Origin: an uncultured Merdimonas sp.
GTDB taxonomy: Bacteria > Bacillota > Clostridia > Lachnospirales > Lachnospiraceae
Direction: 5' to 3'
NCBI GenBank assembly: GCA_944378225.1
Contig: CALWGE010000011.1
Span: 1 to 54,715, forward strand
Length of the DNA: 54,715 bases
Shown: positions 41,962 to 50,305 of the stretch, piece by piece
Layout: each line of letters starts with the position of its first letter
How positions within the stretch are numbered: the first letter of the stretch is position 1
The notes under the pieces: generated by a model
Database searches by the model: none
Seen by the model: the letters and a program-made list of their open reading frames with translations, nothing else
Told to the model about the DNA's origin: nothing
Position numbers and translations under genes: made by a program

Positions 41962-42840
41962 ATGCGGATAAAATGGATCGTGACGGATATGGACGGAACT
42001 CTGCTGAACAGCAGAAATGAAATATCGGATAGAACCAGAAAAGCGCTGATGGACTGCCAGAAAAAGGGAATCCGGCTGATTCTGGCAAGCGGAAGAAGCT
42101 ATGCCCGGCTGATGCCCTATGTAAAAGAACTGCAGCTGGAAGAGTACGGAGGCAGCCTGATAGAAATAAACGGTCTTGCTCTGAACCGGCTCAGAGAAAA
42201 GAAAAGGCAGGTGTTCGCTCAGCTGGAACAGGAAGATATCGATCGGCTGTTTCCGATTCTGGAAGAATGCCGCGCAGAAATTCAGGGATATGAGGATGAT
42301 GCCATTTATTTCTGGATTCCTGAATGGCAGCTTCCTCTGAAAGAACAGGAACGAAAAGAAAAAGGATATCCGCCGGATCATCCTCTGGTTGCCGGTCCCT
42401 GGTCCTGGGTGACGGACAATGTTCATAATTATTCAAAAATCCAGAGGATATATTCCCGTGAAGAACTTCCTCACAGATTGAATAAACTCAACTGCACTTC
42501 GGACAGTGAGCATATGAAGAAGGTTTATCGGGAACTGATTTCCCGGCTGGCTGGACAGTATGAATTTGTAAGAACCTGTCCCAGACTGGTGGAAATCTGT
42601 CCCGCAGGCATCACCAAAGGAAAGACGCTCCGCCGTTATATGAAAATGGAGGGAGTGGCTCCGGAAGAAGTGATGGTCTTCGGAGACGGAGAAAATGATG
42701 TGGACATGTTTTCCAGTGTTAAATACAGCATTGCCATGGGAAATGCGGAGGATTACGTAAAGGAAAGCGCTTCCTACGTGACGGAAACGAACAATGAAGA
42801 TGGTCTGGTGGCTGCGCTTGAGAAATACAGAGTGATTTAA
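41962..42840 (+). CDS. HAD-IIB (Cof-type) phosphatase
   Basis: 292 residues. Motif I DMDGTLLNSRNEIS carries the nucleophile Asp (residue 8) and acid/base Asp10, motif II is ILASGRS, motif III Lys lies near GITKGKTLRRYM, and motif IV is FGDGENDVDM. Cof-type proteins dephosphorylate sugar phosphates or cofactors. ATG at 41962 has AAGGAGAG 8 nt upstream; the longer frame from 41842 has no RBS. It ends 18 nt before the PRD/EIIB regulator gene and may be co-transcribed with the amino-sugar-acid operon, perhaps to remove phosphorylated side products. Substrate unknown. Confidence 0.9.
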   Translation: MRIKWIVTDMDGTLLNSRNEISDRTRKALMDCQKKGIRLILASGRSYARLMPYVKELQLEEYGGSLIEINGLALNRLREKKRQVFAQLEQEDIDRLFPILEECRAEIQGYEDDAIYFWIPEWQLPLKEQERKEKGYPPDHPLVAGPWSWVTDNVHNYSKIQRIYSREELPHRLNKLNCTSDSEHMKKVYRELISRLAGQYEFVRTCPRLVEICPAGITKGKTLRRYMKMEGVAPEEVMVFGDGENDVDMFSSVKYSIAMGNAEDYVKESASYVTETNNEDGLVAALEKYRVI

Positions 42841-42858: not shown

Positions 42859-44763
42859 ATGGAACATACGCCAAAGCCAAGGCAGATGGAAATTCTTAGA
42901 CAGCTGATGATTTCCAATGTTCCCCTGGACGTGGGCTTTTTTATGACAAAGCTCCAGAAAAGCGACAGGACGGTTCGCTATGATATCCATGAACTGAAGG
43001 AAATCTGTGCAAAGTATCAGATAGAAATAGGGTATATCACAAAAAAAGGATATTATATTCCCAGCGCCCAGAAGACGGAATGCGCAGCTCTGCTGATTCA
43101 CTGGGAGGCAGGAAGCAAAGAGAGTCTGTTTGACGAAGAGGAAGAAAAGCGGTACTGGAAGCTGTTTTTCTGTCTGTTTGTACAGAAAGGATATATAACG
43201 GCGGAGAAGCTGTCGGATACGTATTTTGTATCGCGCTCCACACTGGGACGTCTGCTTGTCCGTATGGAAGAATTTTTTGAGGGTGATGTGCAGCTGGACG
43301 CAAAAAAGGCTCTGGGCTACCGCCTGAGAGGAGAGGAGCTCACCCTGCGGAGACTGGCAGTGCGGTTTTTGACATCCCGGTTCAAGGGAAGTTATACGGC
43401 GGATGACTGGTATCTTCTGCTCCCGGAGGAGCTGAAGAGCAGGATACAGCTGAACGAGGTGCGGGAGCTGAGTCAGACGATCCGCAGGATGAATGGAAAG
43501 TATAACATCTGGATTTCCAACACGGCTTATCTGAATCTCATTGGCTACTGTGTGGTGCGTCGGGTTCGTCTCCCTCTGCTTGAGCAGACAGAAACGGTTT
43601 CTGAACGGGAGGATACTTATATTCAGGAGCTGCTGAAGGAACTTTCCATAGGAAATCTGGGCAGGAATGAGCAGGAACTTGACTGGCTGTCCGCCATTCT
43701 GTCGGAAAATGGAATCTATGTGGAAAAGTATCAGGTGAATGAGGCTCTGATTTCCCGTGTCATCAACAGAATCCTGGATTGCCTGTGCAGGGAGCGGAAA
43801 CCGGAGGAATTTGACCTGGAAAGCCTGAGCCAGGATCTGTATGAGCATTTGAAGAATTATCTGGCCATGAGCCGGCAGGATCAGCAGGAAGAAGAGAACG
43901 AATACGTTCTGAAAGAAATCACAGAGTATTACTACTCCTATTATCAGCTGGCAAGGAAACTGGGAAATCAGATAGAGGAAGAGATCGGCCAGAGCCTCGG
44001 GGTGATGGAAATCTGCTATCTGGCAGTTTATCTGTATAAAAACAGTATTTTTACGGAGAACGGCCGGAAAAATGTCATGGTAGTCTGCGCTACCGGAAAG
44101 GGGCTGTCCCATTTCCTGACTCTCCGGATCAAGCATGTATTTCCGGAGCTTAATGTGGTAGGACAGATTTCTCCCTATCAGCTTTCCAAGGCCAGCGATC
44201 TGAAAAACGTAGATTTTGCCATTTCCACCATACCGCTGGAGAACAGCGTTGTTCCTGTAATAAAAATATCCGGAGTGCTGTTGGAAGATGACATAAAGAG
44301 AATCCGGAATTTCCTGAAATACGGAAAACTGGTGGACGAGCTTCCCATGAAACAGAAAAATGAGGCCTCTTTCCTGTCAAGAGAAGATTCAGTCTTTGCC
44401 GAGGAGGCCCAGGATGGAGTGCCGGACGAAAACCTTGCCCAGGCAGCAGGCACTATGAGCCGCCTGATCCTGTCCCTTTTGGAATATACGGCGAAGATGC
44501 CCCCTCAGATTCATATGAGCCAGGACACCATGCTGGGTCTGGTCATTCACATGAGTATGGCCGTACCCCGATGGCTGAGCGGGAACGTGCAGGAGGAAGC
44601 CAGCCGGGATTACCAGCGGGAATATGAACGGTTCCGCACCAGTTATCCGGATGTGTTCCAGGTGATGGGAAAATTTTTCAGTCTGGTGGAAAAAACCCTG
44701 AAGGTCAGAATCCCAATTTCAGAGAGAACAGCGTTCTTTCTGTATATTATAGAGGAGGAATAA
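42859..44763 (+). CDS. PRD- and EIIB-domain transcriptional regulator (BglG/MtlR type)
   Basis: 634 residues. Order: N-terminal HTH (about 5-65, SDRTVRYDIHELKEIC), second HTH/Mga-like part (about 100-165, YFVSRSTLGRLLVRME), PRD-like region (about 200-400), an EIIB-like domain with Cys410 in NVMVVCATGKGLSHFL, and a C-terminal PRD-like part (about 540-634) with LVIHMSMAVPRW. Several usual PRD histidines are replaced (GYCVVRR, YLAVYL), while His330 fits. Activity should follow PTS-type phosphorylation. It lacks an AAA+ domain, unlike the sigma-54 activator DgaR of the enterobacterial D-glucosaminate system. The next gene starts 3 nt after its stop, leaving no room for an antiterminator site; it probably acts as a DNA-binding activator. 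Confidence 0.9.
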   Translation: MEHTPKPRQMEILRQLMISNVPLDVGFFMTKLQKSDRTVRYDIHELKEICAKYQIEIGYITKKGYYIPSAQKTECAALLIHWEAGSKESLFDEEEEKRYWKLFFCLFVQKGYITAEKLSDTYFVSRSTLGRLLVRMEEFFEGDVQLDAKKALGYRLRGEELTLRRLAVRFLTSRFKGSYTADDWYLLLPEELKSRIQLNEVRELSQTIRRMNGKYNIWISNTAYLNLIGYCVVRRVRLPLLEQTETVSEREDTYIQELLKELSIGNLGRNEQELDWLSAILSENGIYVEKYQVNEALISRVINRILDCLCRERKPEEFDLESLSQDLYEHLKNYLAMSRQDQQEEENEYVLKEITEYYYSYYQLARKLGNQIEEEIGQSLGVMEICYLAVYLYKNSIFTENGRKNVMVVCATGKGLSHFLTLRIKHVFPELNVVGQISPYQLSKASDLKNVDFAISTIPLENSVVPVIKISGVLLEDDIKRIRNFLKYGKLVDELPMKQKNEASFLSREDSVFAEEAQDGVPDENLAQAAGTMSRLILSLLEYTAKMPPQIHMSQDTMLGLVIHMSMAVPRWLSGNVQEEASRDYQREYERFRTSYPDVFQVMGKFFSLVEKTLKVRIPISERTAFFLYIIEEE

Positions 44764-44766
44764 GGG

Positions 44767-45903
44767 ATGAGAACATTGTTGATTCAAAATGGACAGCTTC
44801 TCTCCCCCGTAAACGGGTATCGGGGAGAAAAGAAGGACATCCTGATTCGGGACGGGAAAATCGCTGAAATCGAAGACAGTATTTCGGCAGAGGGAGTATC
44901 GGTGGTGGATGCTTCCGGCTGTTATGTGACGCCGGGATTCATAGACATCCATACCCACTGCTATCCCAAAGCATTTCTGGGCCTTGAGCCTGATGTCCTG
45001 GGACTGAAAAGAGGAGCGACTACAATTCTGGATGCCGGATCAAGCGGAGCGGATAATTACGAAGATTTCCGCCGGAATTTCATTGACAAAAGCCGCACTA
45101 AGGTGTTTACGCTCCTGAATGTGTCCAAAGAGGGGCTGATCCGCGGACATGAGCTTGACAGCATGGATAAGCTTGATGAGGCGGCGTTGAAGAAAACCCT
45201 GGAACAGTATAAGGATAACATCGTAGGGCTGAAAGCCCGTGCCAGCGCCAGTGTGGTGGGCCAGATGGGGCTGACACCCATAGCGGAAGCCGCCGCTCTG
45301 GCAAAGGAGACAGGAAAGCCCTTGATGGTTCATGTGGGCAACTATCCTCCGGCTCTGACGGAGGTGTTAAAACTCCTTGGCAGAAACGATATTGTTACCC
45401 ATGCCTACCATGGAAAAAAGGGGGGAATCCTGAATGAAGAGGGGGGCATTATTTCCGAGGCTCTGGAAGCCCGGGAACGGGGTGTTCTCTTTGACATCGG
45501 GCATGGGGTGGCAAGTTTCAGCCTGCGGGTATTTGAAAAGGCGCTGGCCAAAGGGTTTGACTGCGATTTGATTTCTACAGATCTGCATGTGGAAAATTAT
45601 GAAGGACCTGTATACAACATCGCAAGCGTCATGAGCAAGATTCTGAACTGCGGAAACACTCCGGAGCAGGTGATTCATAAGTGTACCTGTGCGCCTGCCA
45701 GACATTTCGGTCTGAAAGGGCTTGGAGAACTGAAGACTGGCTATACAGCCGACCTGAACCTGATTACGGTGGATCCGTGCAGCGAAGAGATTGCAGACTC
45801 GATAGGAGATACTGTGATGCTGAAAGAAAAGATCACGGTCAGAAAAACAGTATACAGCAGGGGAGAAGAAAGTGAAATATTTGGAGAAAGTTCTGCAGAT
45901 TAA
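44767..45903 (+). CDS. Amidohydrolase/deacetylase family metallohydrolase
   Basis: 378 residues of the amidohydrolase superfamily. Metal ligands: His62 and His64 in DIHTHCYP, Lys156 (candidate carboxylated Lys in GLKARAS), His189 in MVHVGN, His212 in VTHAYHG, and catalytic Asp272 in STDLHVEN. A small beta domain is formed by both ends. It resembles the EF_0837-type family that travels with DgaE and the DUF4310-4312 proteins. The likely job is removal of an N-acyl group from an amino-sugar acid or amino acid derivative. Start ATG 3 nt after the regulator, with GAGGAGG inside the regulator end. Confidence 0.9.
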   Translation: MRTLLIQNGQLLSPVNGYRGEKKDILIRDGKIAEIEDSISAEGVSVVDASGCYVTPGFIDIHTHCYPKAFLGLEPDVLGLKRGATTILDAGSSGADNYEDFRRNFIDKSRTKVFTLLNVSKEGLIRGHELDSMDKLDEAALKKTLEQYKDNIVGLKARASASVVGQMGLTPIAEAAALAKETGKPLMVHVGNYPPALTEVLKLLGRNDIVTHAYHGKKGGILNEEGGIISEALEARERGVLFDIGHGVASFSLRVFEKALAKGFDCDLISTDLHVENYEGPVYNIASVMSKILNCGNTPEQVIHKCTCAPARHFGLKGLGELKTGYTADLNLITVDPCSEEIADSIGDTVMLKEKITVRKTVYSRGEESEIFGESSAD

Positions 45904-46240
45904 TGAGATTTCCCAGGAGCAGAGGGAGCTGGCTTCCAGAGAATATCTGGAGGCAAAGGAGAGAGTAAAGGGGCTTCCCGTAGCGTTAGGAGATGACGCA
46001 GACATGATGCTCAGCAATCATCTGATGGCTCTGATCAAACGTATATTGCAGAGACAGTTTGTGGAGCCTGTGGAAGATGAAATGATGAGCGAGCTGTCAG
46101 AGAATGCCTGGAACTACGCCCACCGGGTTGTGGATCCGCTCTTTGCGGCGCATGGACTGGAAGCGGACAGAAGTGAAGTGTTTCTGGTAGGCACACATAT
46201 GGAAATGGCGATTGCAGCGGCAGCACCTGCCGTTCAATAA
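45872..46240 (+). CDS. Stand-alone PRD-domain protein (EF_0829-type)
   Basis: 122 residues, almost wholly one PTS-regulation-like helical domain: ALGDDADMMLSNHLMALIKRI near the centre carries His49-region residues, and a second histidine is in LVGTHMEMAIAAA. Start is GTG at 45872 with GGGGAGAAG upstream, overlapping the amidohydrolase end by 32 nt. Such small PRD proteins always occur with SFCGS/DUF4312 genes, as far as I know, and in the E. coli yhf operon with DUF2620. It may be a phosphorylatable subunit or regulator of the transport complex; this is inference. Confidence 0.78.
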   Translation: MKYLEKVLQINEISQEQRELASREYLEAKERVKGLPVALGDDADMMLSNHLMALIKRILQRQFVEPVEDEMMSELSENAWNYAHRVVDPLFAAHGLEADRSEVFLVGTHMEMAIAAAAPAVQ

Positions 46241-46261
46241 AGAAAAACTGGAGGTATTAGT

Positions 46262-46627
46262 ATGAAAGAAATACTTGTTGTGATTGGCCATCGCATGGGT
46301 AAGGGACAGGCAGTGGCCAGAGGAGTGGAAAAAGCCGGGGGGAAGGCGATTGTGATTCCGGGCATGGCAGCTGATATGAAGCTGGGAGATGTGATGCATG
46401 AGAATCACGCGGATCTGGGAATCAGTTTCTGCGGAAGCGGCGGAGCCGGAGCTCTCATGGCACAGAATAAATACGGGTATAAAGGAAAATCTTCTCTTCG
46501 TTCTGTAGACGCAGCCTGCACCGCGGTGGAAGAAGGCTGCACCGTGGTCGGCCTTGGATTCCTGGATGTGGAGGAGCTGGGACAGCGCCTTGTGGAAACC
46601 TACCGCAGGGTACATGGAGAAGAGTAA
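46262..46627 (+). CDS. Glycine-rich SFCGS-family protein (DUF2620-like)
   Basis: 121 residues, soluble. N-terminal strand and loop ILVVIGHRMGKGQAVARGV (His10), then the family hallmark ISFCGSGGAGALMAQNKYG with Cys57, then VDAACTAVEEGCTVVGLGFLDVEELG. The fold looks like alternating strands and helices. The CGSGG loop recalls the phosphocysteine loop of PTS EIIB proteins, though it sits after the second or third strand. AGGTATT-type weak SD GGAGG lies upstream of ATG at 46262. Function unknown; the context says transporter subunit. Confidence 0.82.
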   Translation: MKEILVVIGHRMGKGQAVARGVEKAGGKAIVIPGMAADMKLGDVMHENHADLGISFCGSGGAGALMAQNKYGYKGKSSLRSVDAACTAVEEGCTVVGLGFLDVEELGQRLVETYRRVHGEE

Positions 46628-46628
46628 C

Positions 46629-46964
46629 ATGTTTGGAAAGAAAGCGGAGCGAATCAATACGTTGGACAGCCGTCAGCTTCTGGAAGAAAAAGAGCACGAG
46701 ATGACCATCAAAATGACGGGAGGCTCGCTGGAGAACGCGGTGGCGAATCTCTTCCAGGTCATGCGCAGGCAGATTTTTGAAGAAATCCGGCATCCCATTA
46801 TTCAGATGGAGGCGAAGGAGGTCTATTTCGAAGAGGTATTGGTTCAGAGAGAGACAGAGAGATTTCTGTTTTTGTTCATGCCAAGAGAAAAAAGTTATTA
46901 TACCATCACCGCCCGGATAGTGGTGAAGGTAAAATATCTAAATATTACAAAGGAGGAATTGTAA
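46629..46964 (+). CDS. DUF4312 family protein
   Basis: 111 residues, soluble, alpha/beta. Seen: EKEHEMTIKMTGGSLENAVANLFQVMRRQIFEEI and a C-terminal FEEVLVQRETERFLFLFMPREKSYYTITARIVVKVKY. It resembles the EF_0831-type family found only in this kind of locus. ATG at 46629 is 1 nt after the previous stop, with GGAGAAG as RBS. It probably forms the cytoplasmic part of a complex with DUF4311 and DUF4310. Function unknown. Confidence 0.8.
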   Translation: MFGKKAERINTLDSRQLLEEKEHEMTIKMTGGSLENAVANLFQVMRRQIFEEIRHPIIQMEAKEVYFEEVLVQRETERFLFLFMPREKSYYTITARIVVKVKYLNITKEEL

Positions 46965-46965
46965 A

Positions 46966-47676
46966 ATGTTAGAAATCGTCATCTACTCAGCCATTATCGG
47001 AATTATTGGCGGCGGATGTATCGCGGCAGGAGCGGCGCGTATGTTCCACGCTCCTGAGATTCAGTCTATGGGAGCTTTCCGTACACTGGGAGAGCTGAAC
47101 GCCTGCAACGGAGACCCTATTTCCCATTTTTCATTTGGTCTGGGCTTCTTCTTCTCATCCGCGGCCTCCGCGGTGGCGGCAGGAGCCATGACACAGGACG
47201 TTATGCACCGTATCGTGCCCAACTGGGGCGCTGCTGTTCTTCTGGCAAAGAATAAGAAGGTAGAGGAAACTTTGCATAACCCGCGCAAAATGATGCTGTC
47301 CGGAGCGGTGATTGGCGGTCTTGTAGTTGTATTCCTGAACACCGTGGCAAGCGTAATTCCGGAAAAGCTTTCCACCATTGCTTCCGAGGTTCTCGGACCT
47401 GCCACCAGCTGGCTGATTAATCCGGTGATGCCCGCCATCTTCTGGCTGGCAGCTGTGGACGCAGGAAAAACCACTGGTATCTGGGGTACGGTTCTGGGCG
47501 GCGTATCCGCGCTGATAACGGGTAATGCAGTGCCTGGCGTTGTGCTTGGTATTCTGATTGGAAAATCCGCAGAGGAAAACGGGTATAAGAGTAAGATTGT
47601 ACAGATTCTGATCGCGATAGTTGTGATACTGTTTATTGCCATCGCATACTTCAGAGGATTCTTTGGACAATTCTAA
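46966..47676 (+). CDS. DUF4311 family membrane protein
   Basis: 236 residues, about six to seven membrane segments, very Gly/Ala-rich: IIGGGCIAAGAARMFHAPEIQ at the start, SHFSFGLGFFFSSAASAVAAGAM, and LGGVSALITGNAVPGVVLGILIG near the end. A conserved-looking NACNGDPISHF loop lies after the first segment. The AGGAGG RBS overlaps the end of the DUF4312 gene. Likely one half of the membrane channel of an uncharacterised transporter; no sequence link to known PTS EIIC proteins is apparent by eye. Confidence 0.84.
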   Translation: MLEIVIYSAIIGIIGGGCIAAGAARMFHAPEIQSMGAFRTLGELNACNGDPISHFSFGLGFFFSSAASAVAAGAMTQDVMHRIVPNWGAAVLLAKNKKVEETLHNPRKMMLSGAVIGGLVVVFLNTVASVIPEKLSTIASEVLGPATSWLINPVMPAIFWLAAVDAGKTTGIWGTVLGGVSALITGNAVPGVVLGILIGKSAEENGYKSKIVQILIAIVVILFIAIAYFRGFFGQF

Positions 47677-47692
47677 GCAGGGAGGAAGAACA

Positions 47693-48343
47693 ATGGAAGA
47701 TAAGAGAAGCTTTGGACAGAAAATGGATGAATTTCTGCTGAAAGACAGCACCTTTATACTGCTGATTATGGGAGCTGCCGCAGCGATTTTTGCAGGAACC
47801 TTTATGTATCTGAAATTTGGCACAGGAGCGTTCAACGATATTTCCATCGTGGCAATGCTTAAGGAAGGAATCGACACGGGAGACTACGCCGCGGCCGCAG
47901 CCTTCGCCGCAGGTTTCCTGATTGCCCGTATTCTGGAAGGACCGCTGGTAGGTCTTCTGGATATCGGCGGTTCCCTTCAGACAGGCGTGGGCATCGGACT
48001 TCCCGCTCTGTTCCTGTCCATGGGATGGGATCTGCCCTTCTCCAATTTCTTTGTGGCGCTTCTGGCAGGCGCAGTCATTGGCCTGGTGCTGGGCGCAGTG
48101 ATCATGATTATCCGTAAGCTGATGCCGGAAGGCGTGGCAGTGGGCGGAACTTCTGTTATGATGGGCGCAGGAAACGCAACCGGCCGTTATCTGGCTCCCC
48201 TGATCGTTCTTGCGGCAGCCAGCTATAATGTATACGCAGGACTGGGAGCAGTTATCGGTGCCGCTGCTTTCTATAAGTGGGGAAAAGAAATGACAGGAGG
48301 AGCTATCCTGGGAGCCATGATTATCGGCGGTATCTTTATTTAG
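47693..48343 (+). CDS. DUF4310 family membrane protein
   Basis: 216 residues, about six membrane segments after a short cytoplasmic N terminus. Blocks: FLIARILEGPLVGLLDIGGSLQTGVGIGLPALFLSMG and EGVAVGGTSVMMGAGNATGRYLAPLIVLAAA. The Gly-rich re-entrant look (GGTSVMMGAGNATG) suggests a substrate path. RBS GGGAGGAAG before ATG at 47693, 17 nt after DUF4311. Expected partner of DUF4311 in the membrane; substrate unknown, probably the compound degraded by the operon enzymes. Confidence 0.84.
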   Translation: MEDKRSFGQKMDEFLLKDSTFILLIMGAAAAIFAGTFMYLKFGTGAFNDISIVAMLKEGIDTGDYAAAAAFAAGFLIARILEGPLVGLLDIGGSLQTGVGIGLPALFLSMGWDLPFSNFFVALLAGAVIGLVLGAVIMIIRKLMPEGVAVGGTSVMMGAGNATGRYLAPLIVLAAASYNVYAGLGAVIGAAAFYKWGKEMTGGAILGAMIIGGIFI

Positions 48344-48388
48344 ACAGAATATACGGATGAAACAGACAGTTTCTGAGGGTGAATGATC

Positions 48389-49495
48389 ATGAATATCTAT
48401 GAAGAAATCGGACTGGAAAGAGTCATCAATGCCAGCGGCCGTGTGACGGTGCTGGGTGTCTCCACTATCAGTGAAAAAGTGGCGGAAGCGGCAGTGGCAG
48501 GAGGACAGTCCTATGTGGTGATGGACGATCTGATTGACAAGGCAGGAGAAATCATTTCCCGTTATACGGGAGCGGAGGACAGTTGTCCCACCGTATGCGC
48601 TTCGGCTGCCATTGCCATATCCATTGCCGGACTGATTTCAAAGGGAAAAAAATCTGTGATGGACCGGCTTCCCGATTCCACGGGCCTTCCCAATGAAATC
48701 ATTCTCCAGAAAGGACACGTAATTAATTTCAACGCGCCCATTGAAACAATGATCCGGCTGGGCGGAGGAGTACCTGTGGAAGCCGGTACAGCCACCGAGG
48801 TGGTGGAGGCGGATGTGGAGGAAGCCATTACAGATAAAACCGTGGCGCTCCTGTATGTGAAGAGCCACCACTGTGTACAGAAGGGAATGCTGGATCTTCC
48901 CACCATGATTGACATTGCCCACCGCAATCAGCTGCCCCTTCTGGTAGATGCGGCGGCAGAGGAGGATTTCCGGAAATATATTGCCATGGGTGCGGATCTG
49001 GTGTTCTACAGCGGCGCGAAAGCCCTGGAAGCCACCACCTCCGGCTTTGTGACCGGCAGAAAGGATCTGATAGCCTACGCAAAAAAGCAGTATAAGGGAA
49101 TCGGCCGCGCCATGAAAGCCGGGAAGGAAGGCATTATGGGGCTTCTGGCCGCCCTGGAGCAGTATGAGCATAAGGACAGACAGGCAGAGGTGGAAAAAAA
49201 TATTGGGATTGTAAACTATCTCTGCGGCGAAATCAATCAGATCCCTGGACTGAGAGCGGAAATGATTCAGGATGAAGCAGGACGGGCCATATACAGGGCA
49301 AGAGTGTTTGTGGAGCCTGATAAGGCAGGAATGACAGCCACGGAGCTGGACGCGAGGCTCAAGGAAGGCAATCCCACAATCCGCTGCCGTACAGAATTCA
49401 TGTCTCTGGGTAAGCTTGATTTTGATCCAAGACCGCTGGTGGCCGGTGACAAGGAACTGATTGTAGAAAAGTTAAGAAGAATAATGGAGGCTTAA
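48389..49495 (+). CDS. DgaE-family PLP-dependent ammonia lyase
   Basis: 368 residues, fold-type I PLP enzyme. Lys211 in FYSGAKALEATTSGF is the Schiff-base lysine, Asp187 in LLVDAAAEED contacts the pyridinium nitrogen, and the N-terminal RVINASGRVTVLG is typical of the SelA/DgaE group. The enterobacterial DgaE turns D-glucosaminate 6-phosphate into 2-keto-3-deoxy-6-phosphogluconate and ammonia. The start is ATG at 48389, 7 nt after AGGGTG; ATG at 48383 is too near it. The aldolase gene starts 2 nt after its stop. Confidence 0.9.
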   Translation: MNIYEEIGLERVINASGRVTVLGVSTISEKVAEAAVAGGQSYVVMDDLIDKAGEIISRYTGAEDSCPTVCASAAIAISIAGLISKGKKSVMDRLPDSTGLPNEIILQKGHVINFNAPIETMIRLGGGVPVEAGTATEVVEADVEEAITDKTVALLYVKSHHCVQKGMLDLPTMIDIAHRNQLPLLVDAAAEEDFRKYIAMGADLVFYSGAKALEATTSGFVTGRKDLIAYAKKQYKGIGRAMKAGKEGIMGLLAALEQYEHKDRQAEVEKNIGIVNYLCGEINQIPGLRAEMIQDEAGRAIYRARVFVEPDKAGMTATELDARLKEGNPTIRCRTEFMSLGKLDFDPRPLVAGDKELIVEKLRRIMEA

Positions 49496-49497
49496 AA

Positions 49498-50232
49498 ATG
49501 GCAATTAATTATTATAAGGGACGAATCTGTTTGAATGTGCTGGGCGGAAGCCTGAAAAACGCCGAAGAGATCTATGCGGCTGCTGAAAAACATGTGGTTG
49601 TGGGCGTGCTTTCCGCCAACTATCCGGATGTACCCAGCGCTGTGGAGGATATGAAAAAGTACATGGATGTTCTGGAAGGAAATCTTTCTGTAGGTCTTGG
49701 GGGAGGCAACCCGGCTCAGTGGAAAGCAGTGGCAGATATCGCCAAAGAGATCAAGGCAAATCATTTTAACCAGACCTTTTCCGCTGTGGGCTGGACAAGA
49801 GCAAACGTGGGCTGCGAGGAAGCGCACATCAACTCCCTCGTTTCTCCCAGCGGAAAACCGGGTTTTGTGAAGATTTCCACAGGAGCCATTTCTTCCAAAT
49901 GCCAGGATCCGGTACTGGCTCCCGTGGATACGGCGATTGCCATGATCCGGGAGATGGGCGGAAATTCAATTAAGTTCTTCCCGATGGGCGGTCTGAAATG
50001 CAGAGAGGAGCTGAAGGCTGTGGCAGAGGCCTGCGCGCGTAACCAGTTTATTCTGGAGCCTACAGGTGGGATCGATTTGGAGAATTTCCGTGAGATTCTG
50101 CAGATTATTCTTGACGCCGGCGTGGAGAAAATGATTCCTCACGTTTATTCCTCTATCATTGACAAGGCAAGCGGGGATACTCGCATTGAGGACGTTAAAA
50201 AGCTGATGGAAATTGTAAAGGAACTGGTATAA
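49498..50232 (+). CDS. dagF: KDPG-type aldolase, DgaF/DagF family
   Basis: 244 residues, TIM-barrel aldolase. It would split 2-keto-3-deoxy-6-phosphogluconate into pyruvate and glyceraldehyde 3-phosphate, the last step of the pathway. Lys159 in SIKFFPMGG is the Schiff-base candidate, and LEPTGGIDLENF is the phosphate-binding end. The N terminus AINYYKGRICLNVLGGSLKNA is typical for the EF_0839-type family. It is the last gene of the operon and is followed by a strong terminator. Confidence 0.9.
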   Translation: MAINYYKGRICLNVLGGSLKNAEEIYAAAEKHVVVGVLSANYPDVPSAVEDMKKYMDVLEGNLSVGLGGGNPAQWKAVADIAKEIKANHFNQTFSAVGWTRANVGCEEAHINSLVSPSGKPGFVKISTGAISSKCQDPVLAPVDTAIAMIREMGGNSIKFFPMGGLKCREELKAVAEACARNQFILEPTGGIDLENFREILQIILDAGVEKMIPHVYSSIIDKASGDTRIEDVKKLMEIVKELV

Positions 50233-50249
50233 TATAAGCCATTTTTGAA

Positions 50250-50295
50250 GAGAATGTCCCTCAGGTCATGTAAGGCCTTTGGGACATTCTCTTTT
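50250..50295 (+). terminator. Intrinsic terminator after the amino-sugar-acid operon
   Basis: The 11-bp perfect stem GAGAATGTCCC (50250-50260) with GGGACATTCTC (50281-50291), then TTTT. Confidence 0.9.
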
Positions 50296-50305
50296 ATTAC
50301 AGTCA

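What the first reader, a model, noticed from the sequence alone, without database searches (positions are those of the whole stretch)
42859..50232. Operon for an uncharacterised transport and catabolism system for an (N-acyl) amino-sugar acid
Seen: regulator, amidohydrolase, stand-alone PRD protein, SFCGS protein, DUF4312, DUF4311, DUF4310, DgaE-type ammonia lyase and KDPG-type aldolase in one strand with gaps of 1-45 nt or overlaps. Known: DgaE and DgaF in Salmonella degrade D-glucosaminate 6-phosphate after PTS uptake; the same DUF set occurs with them in Enterococcus (EF_0829 to EF_0839 region). Inference: the four or five small conserved proteins replace the PTS permease as a new uptake system, and the amidohydrolase removes an N-acyl group first. 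No kinase is present, though the lyase and aldolase are expected to act on phosphorylated compounds, so uptake may include phosphorylation.
Basis: partly seen in the sequence, partly recalled or inferred. Interest (0 to 1): 0.8.

Follow-up and report, generated by a model that had tools for sequence, protein, structure and literature searches.

The report
Candidate new sugar-phosphorylating uptake system
A block of five adjacent genes of unknown function, found in many gut and soil bacteria, appears to import and phosphorylate an amino-sugar acid by drawing on the cell's PEP-driven sugar-uptake chain, although none of its parts resembles a known sugar permease of that chain.

Summary
The operon is real (42859-50232; a HAD phosphatase gene ends 18 nt upstream). 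Five genes, PRD, SFCGS, DUF4312, DUF4311 and DUF4310, form a fixed cassette in the 86 loci studied. The best-supported reading is a PTS-linked permease of a new type that imports and phosphorylates a D-glucosaminate-like (perhaps N-acylated) acid.

The evidence is comparative, none biochemical:
(1) 22 of 86 loci have an HPr gene beside the operon on its strand, 10 of them with Enzyme I.
(2) Of 9 DgaE genes without a cassette of their own, 8 stand with a PfkB/FGGY kinase and 1 with a mannose-family PTS permease; 0 of 77 cassette-linked loci has such a kinase.
(3) In one Olsenella locus twin DgaE-DgaF pairs stand behind a PTS permease and behind the cassette.
(4) The DgaE phosphate Arg triad is invariant in 80 rows.
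(5) PRD histidines and SFCGS Cys57 are (nearly) invariant.
(6) 82 of 84 cassette genomes have Enzyme I.

SFCGS is related to E. coli YhfU. Profile searches found no known EII in DUF4310/4311.

The parts
41962..42840 (+). Cof-type HAD phosphatase (possible sugar-phosphate phosphatase), 18 nt upstream of the regulator
   Evidence: TIGR00099 169.1 bits over cut-off 137; a HAD hit somewhere in the held stretch of 23 of 86 loci, directly before the regulator in 9 and directly after DgaF in 10 (gap table)
42859..44763 (+). transcriptional regulator, HTH-Mga-PRD with a weak EIIB-like stretch
   Evidence: PF08279, PF05043, PF00874; PF02302 only E 0.04
44767..45903 (+). amidohydrolase/deacetylase of the EF_0837 group
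   Evidence: PRK09237 over cut-off; H62, H64, K156, H189, H212, D272, read as metal ligands from recalled knowledge of the superfamily, invariant in 83 of 83 rows
45872..46240 (+). stand-alone PRD protein (proposed phosphoryl acceptor); the GTG start overlaps the amidohydrolase
   Evidence: PF00874; H50 in 81 of 81 and H109 in 79 of 81 rows (window, 78 loci, 2 YhfY-type)
46262..46627 (+). SFCGS protein, RpiB/LacAB-like by weak profile hits, invariant Cys57
   Evidence: TIGR03577 over cut-off; C57 in 87 of 87 rows; weak LacAB_rpiB hits in 27 of 34 members
46629..46964 (+). DUF4312, predicted soluble
   Evidence: PF14189 58.6 over 27; no hydrophobic segment in a simple scan
46966..47676 (+). DUF4311 membrane protein (proposed permease subunit)
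   Evidence: TIGR03580 over cut-off; 4 strong hydrophobic segments in a simple scan
47693..48343 (+). DUF4310 membrane protein (proposed permease subunit)
   Evidence: TIGR03579 over cut-off; 4 strong hydrophobic segments in a simple scan
48383..49495 (+). DgaE-type PLP ammonia lyase
   Evidence: TIGR01437 over cut-off; active-site residues of 7lc0 conserved
49498..50232 (+). DgaF-type KDGP aldolase
   Evidence: NF047796 over cut-off
50249..50296 (+). terminator-like hairpin with T run
   Evidence: read from the sequence printed; not scanned with a terminator tool

Best explanation
PRD-SFCGS-DUF4312-DUF4311-DUF4310 is a PTS-linked, phosphorylating uptake system of a type that profile searches do not relate to known Enzymes II. 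Enzyme I and HPr (inferred donors) phosphorylate the stand-alone PRD on a histidine; SFCGS, a small protein related to DUF2620 and weakly to the RpiB/LacAB fold, with an invariant Cys in an anion-binding-like loop, handles the phosphoryl group or the sugar phosphate; DUF4311 and DUF4310 form the membrane part, with DUF4312 accessory (all inferred). The product is 6-phosphorylated D-glucosaminate or its N-acyl form; the amidohydrolase removes the acyl group, DgaE eliminates ammonia to give KDGP, and DgaF splits KDGP to pyruvate and glyceraldehyde 3-phosphate (pathway as in Salmonella DgaE/DgaF). Shown here: gene content, order, residue conservation, co-localisation. Inferred: transport, phosphoryl route, substrate.
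For: HPr gene beside the operon, same strand, in 22 of 86 loci, 10 of them with EI; the HPr/EI block lies 11 to 248 nt from the operon; HPr His motif 22 of 22, EI GGxTSH motif 10 of 10; Pfam agrees, 12 + 10 HPr and 6 + 4 EI. 0 HPr/EI in 14 comparison loci, 7 of them DgaF loci without cassette. HPr presence changes at least 8 times on a quick DUF4311 tree. DgaE without its own cassette: PfkB in L152-L156, L093, L095, FGGY in L157, man-family EII for the second L029 copy; PfkB/FGGY hits in 0 of 77 cassette-linked loci; Fisher 1.7e-10 on the table 0/77 against 8/9. L029: DgaE copies 368/369 and DgaF 244/244 identical, one pair behind EIIA-EIIB and EIIC-EIID proteins, one behind the cassette. DgaE H162, H163, K213, R301, R332, R346 equivalents 80 of 80 (roles from PMC9529869 passages). 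All 7 cassette genomes among 398 have DgaF (13 of 398). EI in 82 of 84 cassette genomes against 73 of 199 drawn from the phylum. PRD-SFCGS fusions in L019, L079, L084, L085 (three re-checked by Pfam).
Against: No phosphoryl-transfer or transport datum exists. 64 of 86 loci have no HPr in the held stretch, and 13 of the 80 fetched contig loci are under 19 kb. Two cassette genomes, both MAGs (G412, G438), gave no EI. The regulator also has PRDs and may by itself explain the PTS link; against that, 7 loci show no such regulator in the held stretch, 5 of them L027-L029, L037, L040, and L027 and L037 have GntR genes instead. The Arg triad is intact in kinase-type DgaE too, so it does not tell the routes apart. 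L093/L095 carry a kinase beside an enzyme-less cassette. L018 and the first of two tandem cassettes in L068 lack DgaEF of their own and have no HPr. Only PfkB/FGGY kinases were sought, and EII genes were not excluded around all 86 loci. EI co-occurrence is confounded by lineage. hhalign probabilities for SFCGS are low (28% with DUF2620; 4% with RpiB).
Confidence: 0.6

Rival explanations
1. The cassette is an ordinary (ion-driven) importer of the free acid whose activity is gated by PTS phosphorylation of the PRD protein; phosphorylation of the substrate is done by an unlinked kinase.
For: PRDs are known as regulatory targets of HPr and EII (passage of PMC4987338). Enzyme-less cassettes coexist with a PfkB-containing DgaE operon in L093/L095 and in genome G244.
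Against: No PfkB/FGGY hit in 77 cassette-linked loci while 8 of 9 other DgaE genes stand with one and the ninth with a PTS EII; L029 pairs the same enzymes with a PTS permease; extra HPr and EI copies beside the operon are more than gating would need (inference).
Confidence: 0.25
2. PRD and SFCGS are regulatory or enzymatic (SFCGS a sugar-phosphate isomerase of RpiB type) and only DUF4310/4311 transport; the HPr/EI genes serve the PRD regulator.
For: SFCGS resembles LacAB_rpiB (27 of 34 members, best 4.7e-4; 7.1e-5 for the SFCGS gene of G055); the alignment to LacB puts the Cys loop in the same place.
Against: PRD-SFCGS fusions and fixed order next to the membrane genes; cassette kept where the PRD regulator is absent from the held stretch; no isomerase step is needed between glucosaminate 6-phosphate and KDGP (known pathway).
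Confidence: 0.12
3. The HPr/EI neighbours are chance or lineage effects and the cassette has no PTS link.
For: HPr-family genes are multicopy (3 to 24 matches per genome in the 23 searched), and the 22 loci are in part closely related (tree).
Against: All 22 lie on the operon strand within 248 nt of the operon or its EI, both up- and downstream, with at least 8 changes on the tree; 0 in 14 comparison loci.
Confidence: 0.03

Closest known systems
Salmonella dgaABCDEF (mannose-family PTS EII plus DgaE and DgaF)
   Same: DgaE-type lyase with the same active-site residues and a DgaF-type aldolase; uptake by PTS there (passages of PMC9529869 and PMC4987338)
   Different: EIIA/B/C/D replaced by PRD, SFCGS, DUF4312, DUF4311 and DUF4310; an amidohydrolase added; regulator is HTH-Mga-PRD, not the LevR-like DgaR
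EF_0829-EF_0839 / AHA_3910-AHA_3917 conserved families (TIGR03577-TIGR03583)
   Same: same gene set; SFCGS, DUF4311, DUF4310 and DgaF (TIGR03581) pass the curated cut-offs; the set is seen in Enterococcus viikkiensis (L097)
   Different: PRD, DUF4312 and amidohydrolase fall below those hypoth_equivalog cut-offs; the family names carry no function for the cassette proteins
E. coli yhf operon: YhfY (PRD), YhfU (DUF2620), YhfT
   Same: a PRD protein, an SFCGS-related small protein and a large hydrophobic protein in one operon
   Different: YhfT gave no significant match to DUF4311 or DUF4310; different enzymes; the second PRD His is Leu in YhfY; no HPr/EI at the three yhf loci checked
RpiB/LacAB sugar-phosphate isomerases
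   Same: weak profile match over the CGTG loop region and C-terminal half
   Different: match below the Pfam cut-off, one-residue longer loop, no isomerase step expected

Membership tests
PTS Enzyme II (known superfamilies) | membrane subunit related to a known EIIC/EIID | tested here: not met
   41 DUF4311 and 45 DUF4310 members against Pfam at E up to 10: no PTS EII family among the 24 and 19 families listed; stray weak hits include DUF2232 (18 of 41, best 7.6e-4) and single MFS_1_like (0.014), Nramp (5.5), ECF (9.1) hits. PDB: none for DUF4311, only three small PsbX chains at E 0.25 or worse for DUF4310. Fold comparison was not possible.
PTS Enzyme II (known superfamilies) | EIIA and EIIB domains | tested here: not met
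   The window PRD protein matched PF00874 and a stray bpMoxR hit; 34 SFCGS members matched SFCGS, LacAB_rpiB, DUF2620 and stray families, no EIIA/EIIB family.
PTS Enzyme II (known superfamilies) | dependence on EI and HPr | tested here: inconclusive
   gene neighbourhood and co-occurrence agree; not biochemical.
PTS Enzyme II (known superfamilies) | PEP-dependent phosphorylation of the substrate during uptake | not testable with these tools
   needs assays.
[quoted passage not shown]
   all aligned in the window protein and in 80 of 80 rows; residue roles from PMC9529869 passages, where the phosphate contacts rest on manual docking.
[quoted passage not shown]
   458.3 bits against 600; the subfamily model TIGR01437 is met.
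DgaF (KDGP aldolase) | score over the NF047796 equivalog cut-off | tested here: met
   375.2 bits against 300.
RpiB/LacAB isomerase family (for SFCGS) | Pfam PF02502 over the gathering score | tested here: not met
   14.6 bits in the window protein; best seen 23.7 against 24.7.
RpiB/LacAB isomerase family (for SFCGS) | remote homology | tested here: inconclusive
   27 of 34 members hit weakly; best PDB hit LacB E 0.11; my RpiB profile hit 2 of 87 SFCGS proteins (E 0.007) and one true RpiB among 7318 ORFs, and hhalign gave P 0.0097, probability 4%.
DUF2620 (YhfU) relatives | a DUF2620 profile picks out SFCGS specifically | tested here: met
   a 3-sequence DUF2620 profile hit 46 of 7318 ORFs at E up to 10, 45 of them SFCGS, best 4.4e-4; 13 of 34 SFCGS members hit DUF2620 in Pfam, best 0.0075; hhalign P 6e-4, probability 28%.

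The most novel reading that the evidence does not exclude
The five-gene cassette is an independently evolved class of PTS Enzyme II in which a stand-alone PRD has taken over the part of EIIA, an RpiB-like protein with an invariant Cys the part of EIIB, and DUF4311/DUF4310 the part of EIIC/EIID; E. coli YhfY-YhfU-YhfT would be a second branch of the same idea, so that a phosphorylating transporter of unknown substrate would be present in E. coli K-12.
Probability: 0.4. Interest if true: 0.92.

Novelty: new variant of a known kind. Interest (0 to 1): 0.8.

Why it matters
PTS permeases are thought to fall into a handful of evolutionary families (recalled). A permease built around a regulatory domain and an isomerase-like protein would be a new solution to group translocation, would give roles to PF14187, PF14188, PF14189, PF14272 and TIGR03582 and perhaps to DUF2620 and YhfT, and turns a long-standing annotation gap into a simple test: does loss of ptsI abolish cassette-dependent growth on glucosaminate-type acids?

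Tried and rejected
YhfT as a fusion of DUF4311 and DUF4310: suggested by size and operon parallels; hhalign and hmmsearch gave nothing significant, so rejected at sequence level. In one search one of the four YhfT rows (108T) was a wrong-strand ORF; one search used the right one. DUF4311 against DUF4310: nothing significant.

DgaE Arg triad as a marker that separates kinase-type from cassette-type operons: intact in both, so not informative.

My PRD profile became contaminated by SFCGS through the fusion proteins, so its hits on single SFCGS proteins are void; fusions were re-checked with Pfam for L019, L055, L079, L084, L094. The EI hit in L036 is an 864-aa protein of pyruvate-phosphate-dikinase size and was dropped. 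Left out of the kinase table: L158 (DgaF, no DgaE found) and a 150-aa DgaE fragment in L019.

L017/L062 look like one genome (G384 and G431 share EI coordinates) and L084/L085 bear the same MAG prefix, so counts hold duplicates. DUF4312 is missing from the strings of L040 and L094 only because its ORF overlaps SFCGS; the profile finds it in 86 of 86. Of 185 flanking genes listed I scanned 181; for those only the 25 commonest families are shown, so single EII genes further out are not excluded; ten flanking genes seen in full held no EII. The DUF2232 hits of DUF4311 were not followed.

Literature: searches listed no paper in the held library that treats the DUF4310/4311/4312/SFCGS set as a system (listings only). 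Passages seen: PMC9529869, PMC4987338, PMC7701990, PMC7396535; PMC10746210 and PMC8262876 gave only a reference-list line. Miller 2013 and Phillips 2021 were not held.
Full report
What is there. The operon runs from 42859 to 50232 on the + strand: regulator, amidohydrolase, PRD, SFCGS, DUF4312, DUF4311, DUF4310, DgaE, DgaF. A Cof-type HAD phosphatase ends 18 nt upstream and a terminator-like hairpin follows DgaF. A DNA search with the SFCGS-DUF4311 stretch found one copy in the genome, which is held as 138 contigs.

The cassette is a unit. SFCGS, DUF4312 and DUF4311 are found in 86 of 86 and DUF4310 in 85, the exception (L049) ending at a contig edge. The order PRD-SFCGS-4312-4311-4310 is kept, counting fusions, while the amidohydrolase, regulator and DgaEF change place: the amidohydrolase follows DUF4310 in Enterobacterales and Enterococcus (L097) and precedes the PRD in the others that have it adjacent. 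Median gaps within the cassette are -1 to 20 nt (starts taken mechanically). PRD and SFCGS are fused in L019, L079, L084 and L085, amidohydrolase and PRD in L055, SFCGS and DUF4312 in L094. DgaE is missing from 7 of 86 loci; L018, L050 and L054 of these are not at contig ends. L093 and L095 have a DgaE operon of another kind nearby, and L068 has two tandem cassettes with one DgaEF pair.

Link to the PTS. The commonest extra gene in the operon runs was an HPr. A profile search found HPr in 22 of 86 loci, each time on the operon strand: downstream in 9 (L020, L042, L043, L045, L047, L092, L103, L104, L106) and before the regulator in 13, of which 9 have HPr followed by EI; L020 has HPr and then EI downstream. 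The HPr/EI block lies 11 to 248 nt from the operon. All 22 keep the HPr histidine motif and all 10 EI the GGxTSH motif. Pfam agrees: 12 + 10 HPr and 6 + 4 EI among 181 scanned flanking genes. Fourteen comparison loci of 236,649 bases, 7 of them DgaF loci without the cassette and 3 of them yhf loci, have none. HPr presence changes at least 8 times on a quick DUF4311 tree. The genomes searched hold 3 to 24 HPr-family matches, so these look like extra copies. Among cassettes without DgaEF of their own, HPr is beside L050, L054, L093 and L095 but not L018 or the first L068 cassette. Enzyme I was found in 53 of 55 cassette genomes (PF05524) and in 29 of 29 further ones (TIGR01417 over cut-off); the two misses, G412 and G438, are MAGs and missed again. 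In 199 genomes drawn from the phylum it was 73; for the 7 cassette genomes among the handles of that phylum it is 7 of 7 against 70 of 196 others (Fisher 9e-4). Lineage confounds this last test.

Phosphorylation should precede DgaE. The window DgaE aligns with Salmonella DGL (7lc0) at H162, H163, the lysine at position 213 of that chain, R226, and the three arginines placed near the phosphate by manual docking, R301, R332 and R346 (roles from passages of PMC9529869, which writes Lys-217 for the lysine). Over 80 rows all are invariant except R226 (Arg 25, Lys 55). Yet the operon has no kinase. Among 398 genomes of the phylum, DgaF occurs in 13 and DUF4311 over the cut-off in 7, and all 7 also have DgaF (hypergeometric 6e-12). 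I read the DgaF loci without the cassette: L152-L156 have amidohydrolase-DgaE-DgaF-PfkB kinase; L157 has an SSF symporter, an FGGY kinase, DgaE and DgaF; L158 lacks DgaE. L093 and L095 have their own DgaE-DgaF-PfkB beside an enzyme-less cassette. Profiles of these kinases hit no other of the 86 loci, giving 8 of 9 against 0 of 77 (Fisher 1.7e-10). The ninth is the telling one: in Olsenella sp. Marseille-P4559 (L029) a second DgaE-DgaF pair, 368/369 and 244/244 identical to the first, stands behind a mannose-family EIIA-EIIB protein and an EIIC-EIID protein, while the first stands behind the cassette. The same enzyme types are thus served by a kinase, by a PTS permease, or by the cassette. The cassette operon there has an amidohydrolase and the PTS operon shows none among its ORFs, which suggests that the cassette carries an acylated form (inference).

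How the parts may work. The stand-alone PRD keeps both PRD histidines (H50 81 of 81, H109 79 of 81; 78 of the 86 loci gave a row). SFCGS keeps Cys57 in C-G-S-G-G-A-G in 87 of 87. SFCGS is related to DUF2620/YhfU: a DUF2620 profile hit 46 of 7318 ORFs, 45 of them SFCGS. Both show weak matches to LacAB_rpiB, whose CGTG loop aligns with the Cys loop; an RpiB profile of my own reached only 2 of 87 SFCGS proteins. DUF4311 and DUF4310 are hydrophobic and matched no PTS EII family; stray weak hits to other membrane families are listed under membership. I therefore propose HPr to PRD to SFCGS to substrate at DUF4311/4310, with DUF4312 accessory. The order of steps is inference. L027-L029, L037 and L040 (four Coriobacteriia and one unclassified record) keep the cassette without the PRD regulator in the held stretch; GntR regulators were seen in the 2 checked, L027 and L037, so the stand-alone PRD is not merely a partner of that regulator.

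Known or new. The gene set is already recognised as conserved families named after EF_0829-0839 and AHA_3910-3917, without function. [quoted passage not shown] I found no paper on the set in the held library. By membership it is not a known Enzyme II: no EII homology was found by profile. By behaviour it looks like one.

Noticed in passing
L029:1417-13261: Two near-identical DgaE-DgaF pairs in one 20-kb stretch, one with a mannose-family PTS EII, one with the cassette: a natural paired experiment.
   Followed up: yes
L154:7159-15677 and L152:3213-9881: Amidohydrolase-DgaE-DgaF-PfkB operons stand beside PTS EIIC and MupG genes, in L154 also a SIS-domain protein (MurQ name recalled), hinting at a link of this catabolism with cell-wall sugar recovery.
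   Followed up: partly
L107:4936-12345: E. coli K-12 yhf operon parallels the cassette: PRD (YhfY), SFCGS-related YhfU, large hydrophobic YhfT.
   Followed up: partly
L068:1811-13296: Two tandem amidohydrolase-cassette copies share one DgaE-DgaF pair.
   Followed up: no
L019:8102-8821: DUF4311 is split by an in-frame TAG in this genome (G274) while the other cassette genes are open.
   Followed up: no
window 41962-42840: A Cof-type HAD phosphatase gene abuts the operon; relatives have it before the regulator or after DgaF, as if it drains a sugar phosphate.
   Followed up: partly
L045:3694-4767: A MupG-type 6-phospho-N-acetylmuramidase gene lies just upstream of the HAD-led cassette operon.
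   Followed up: no
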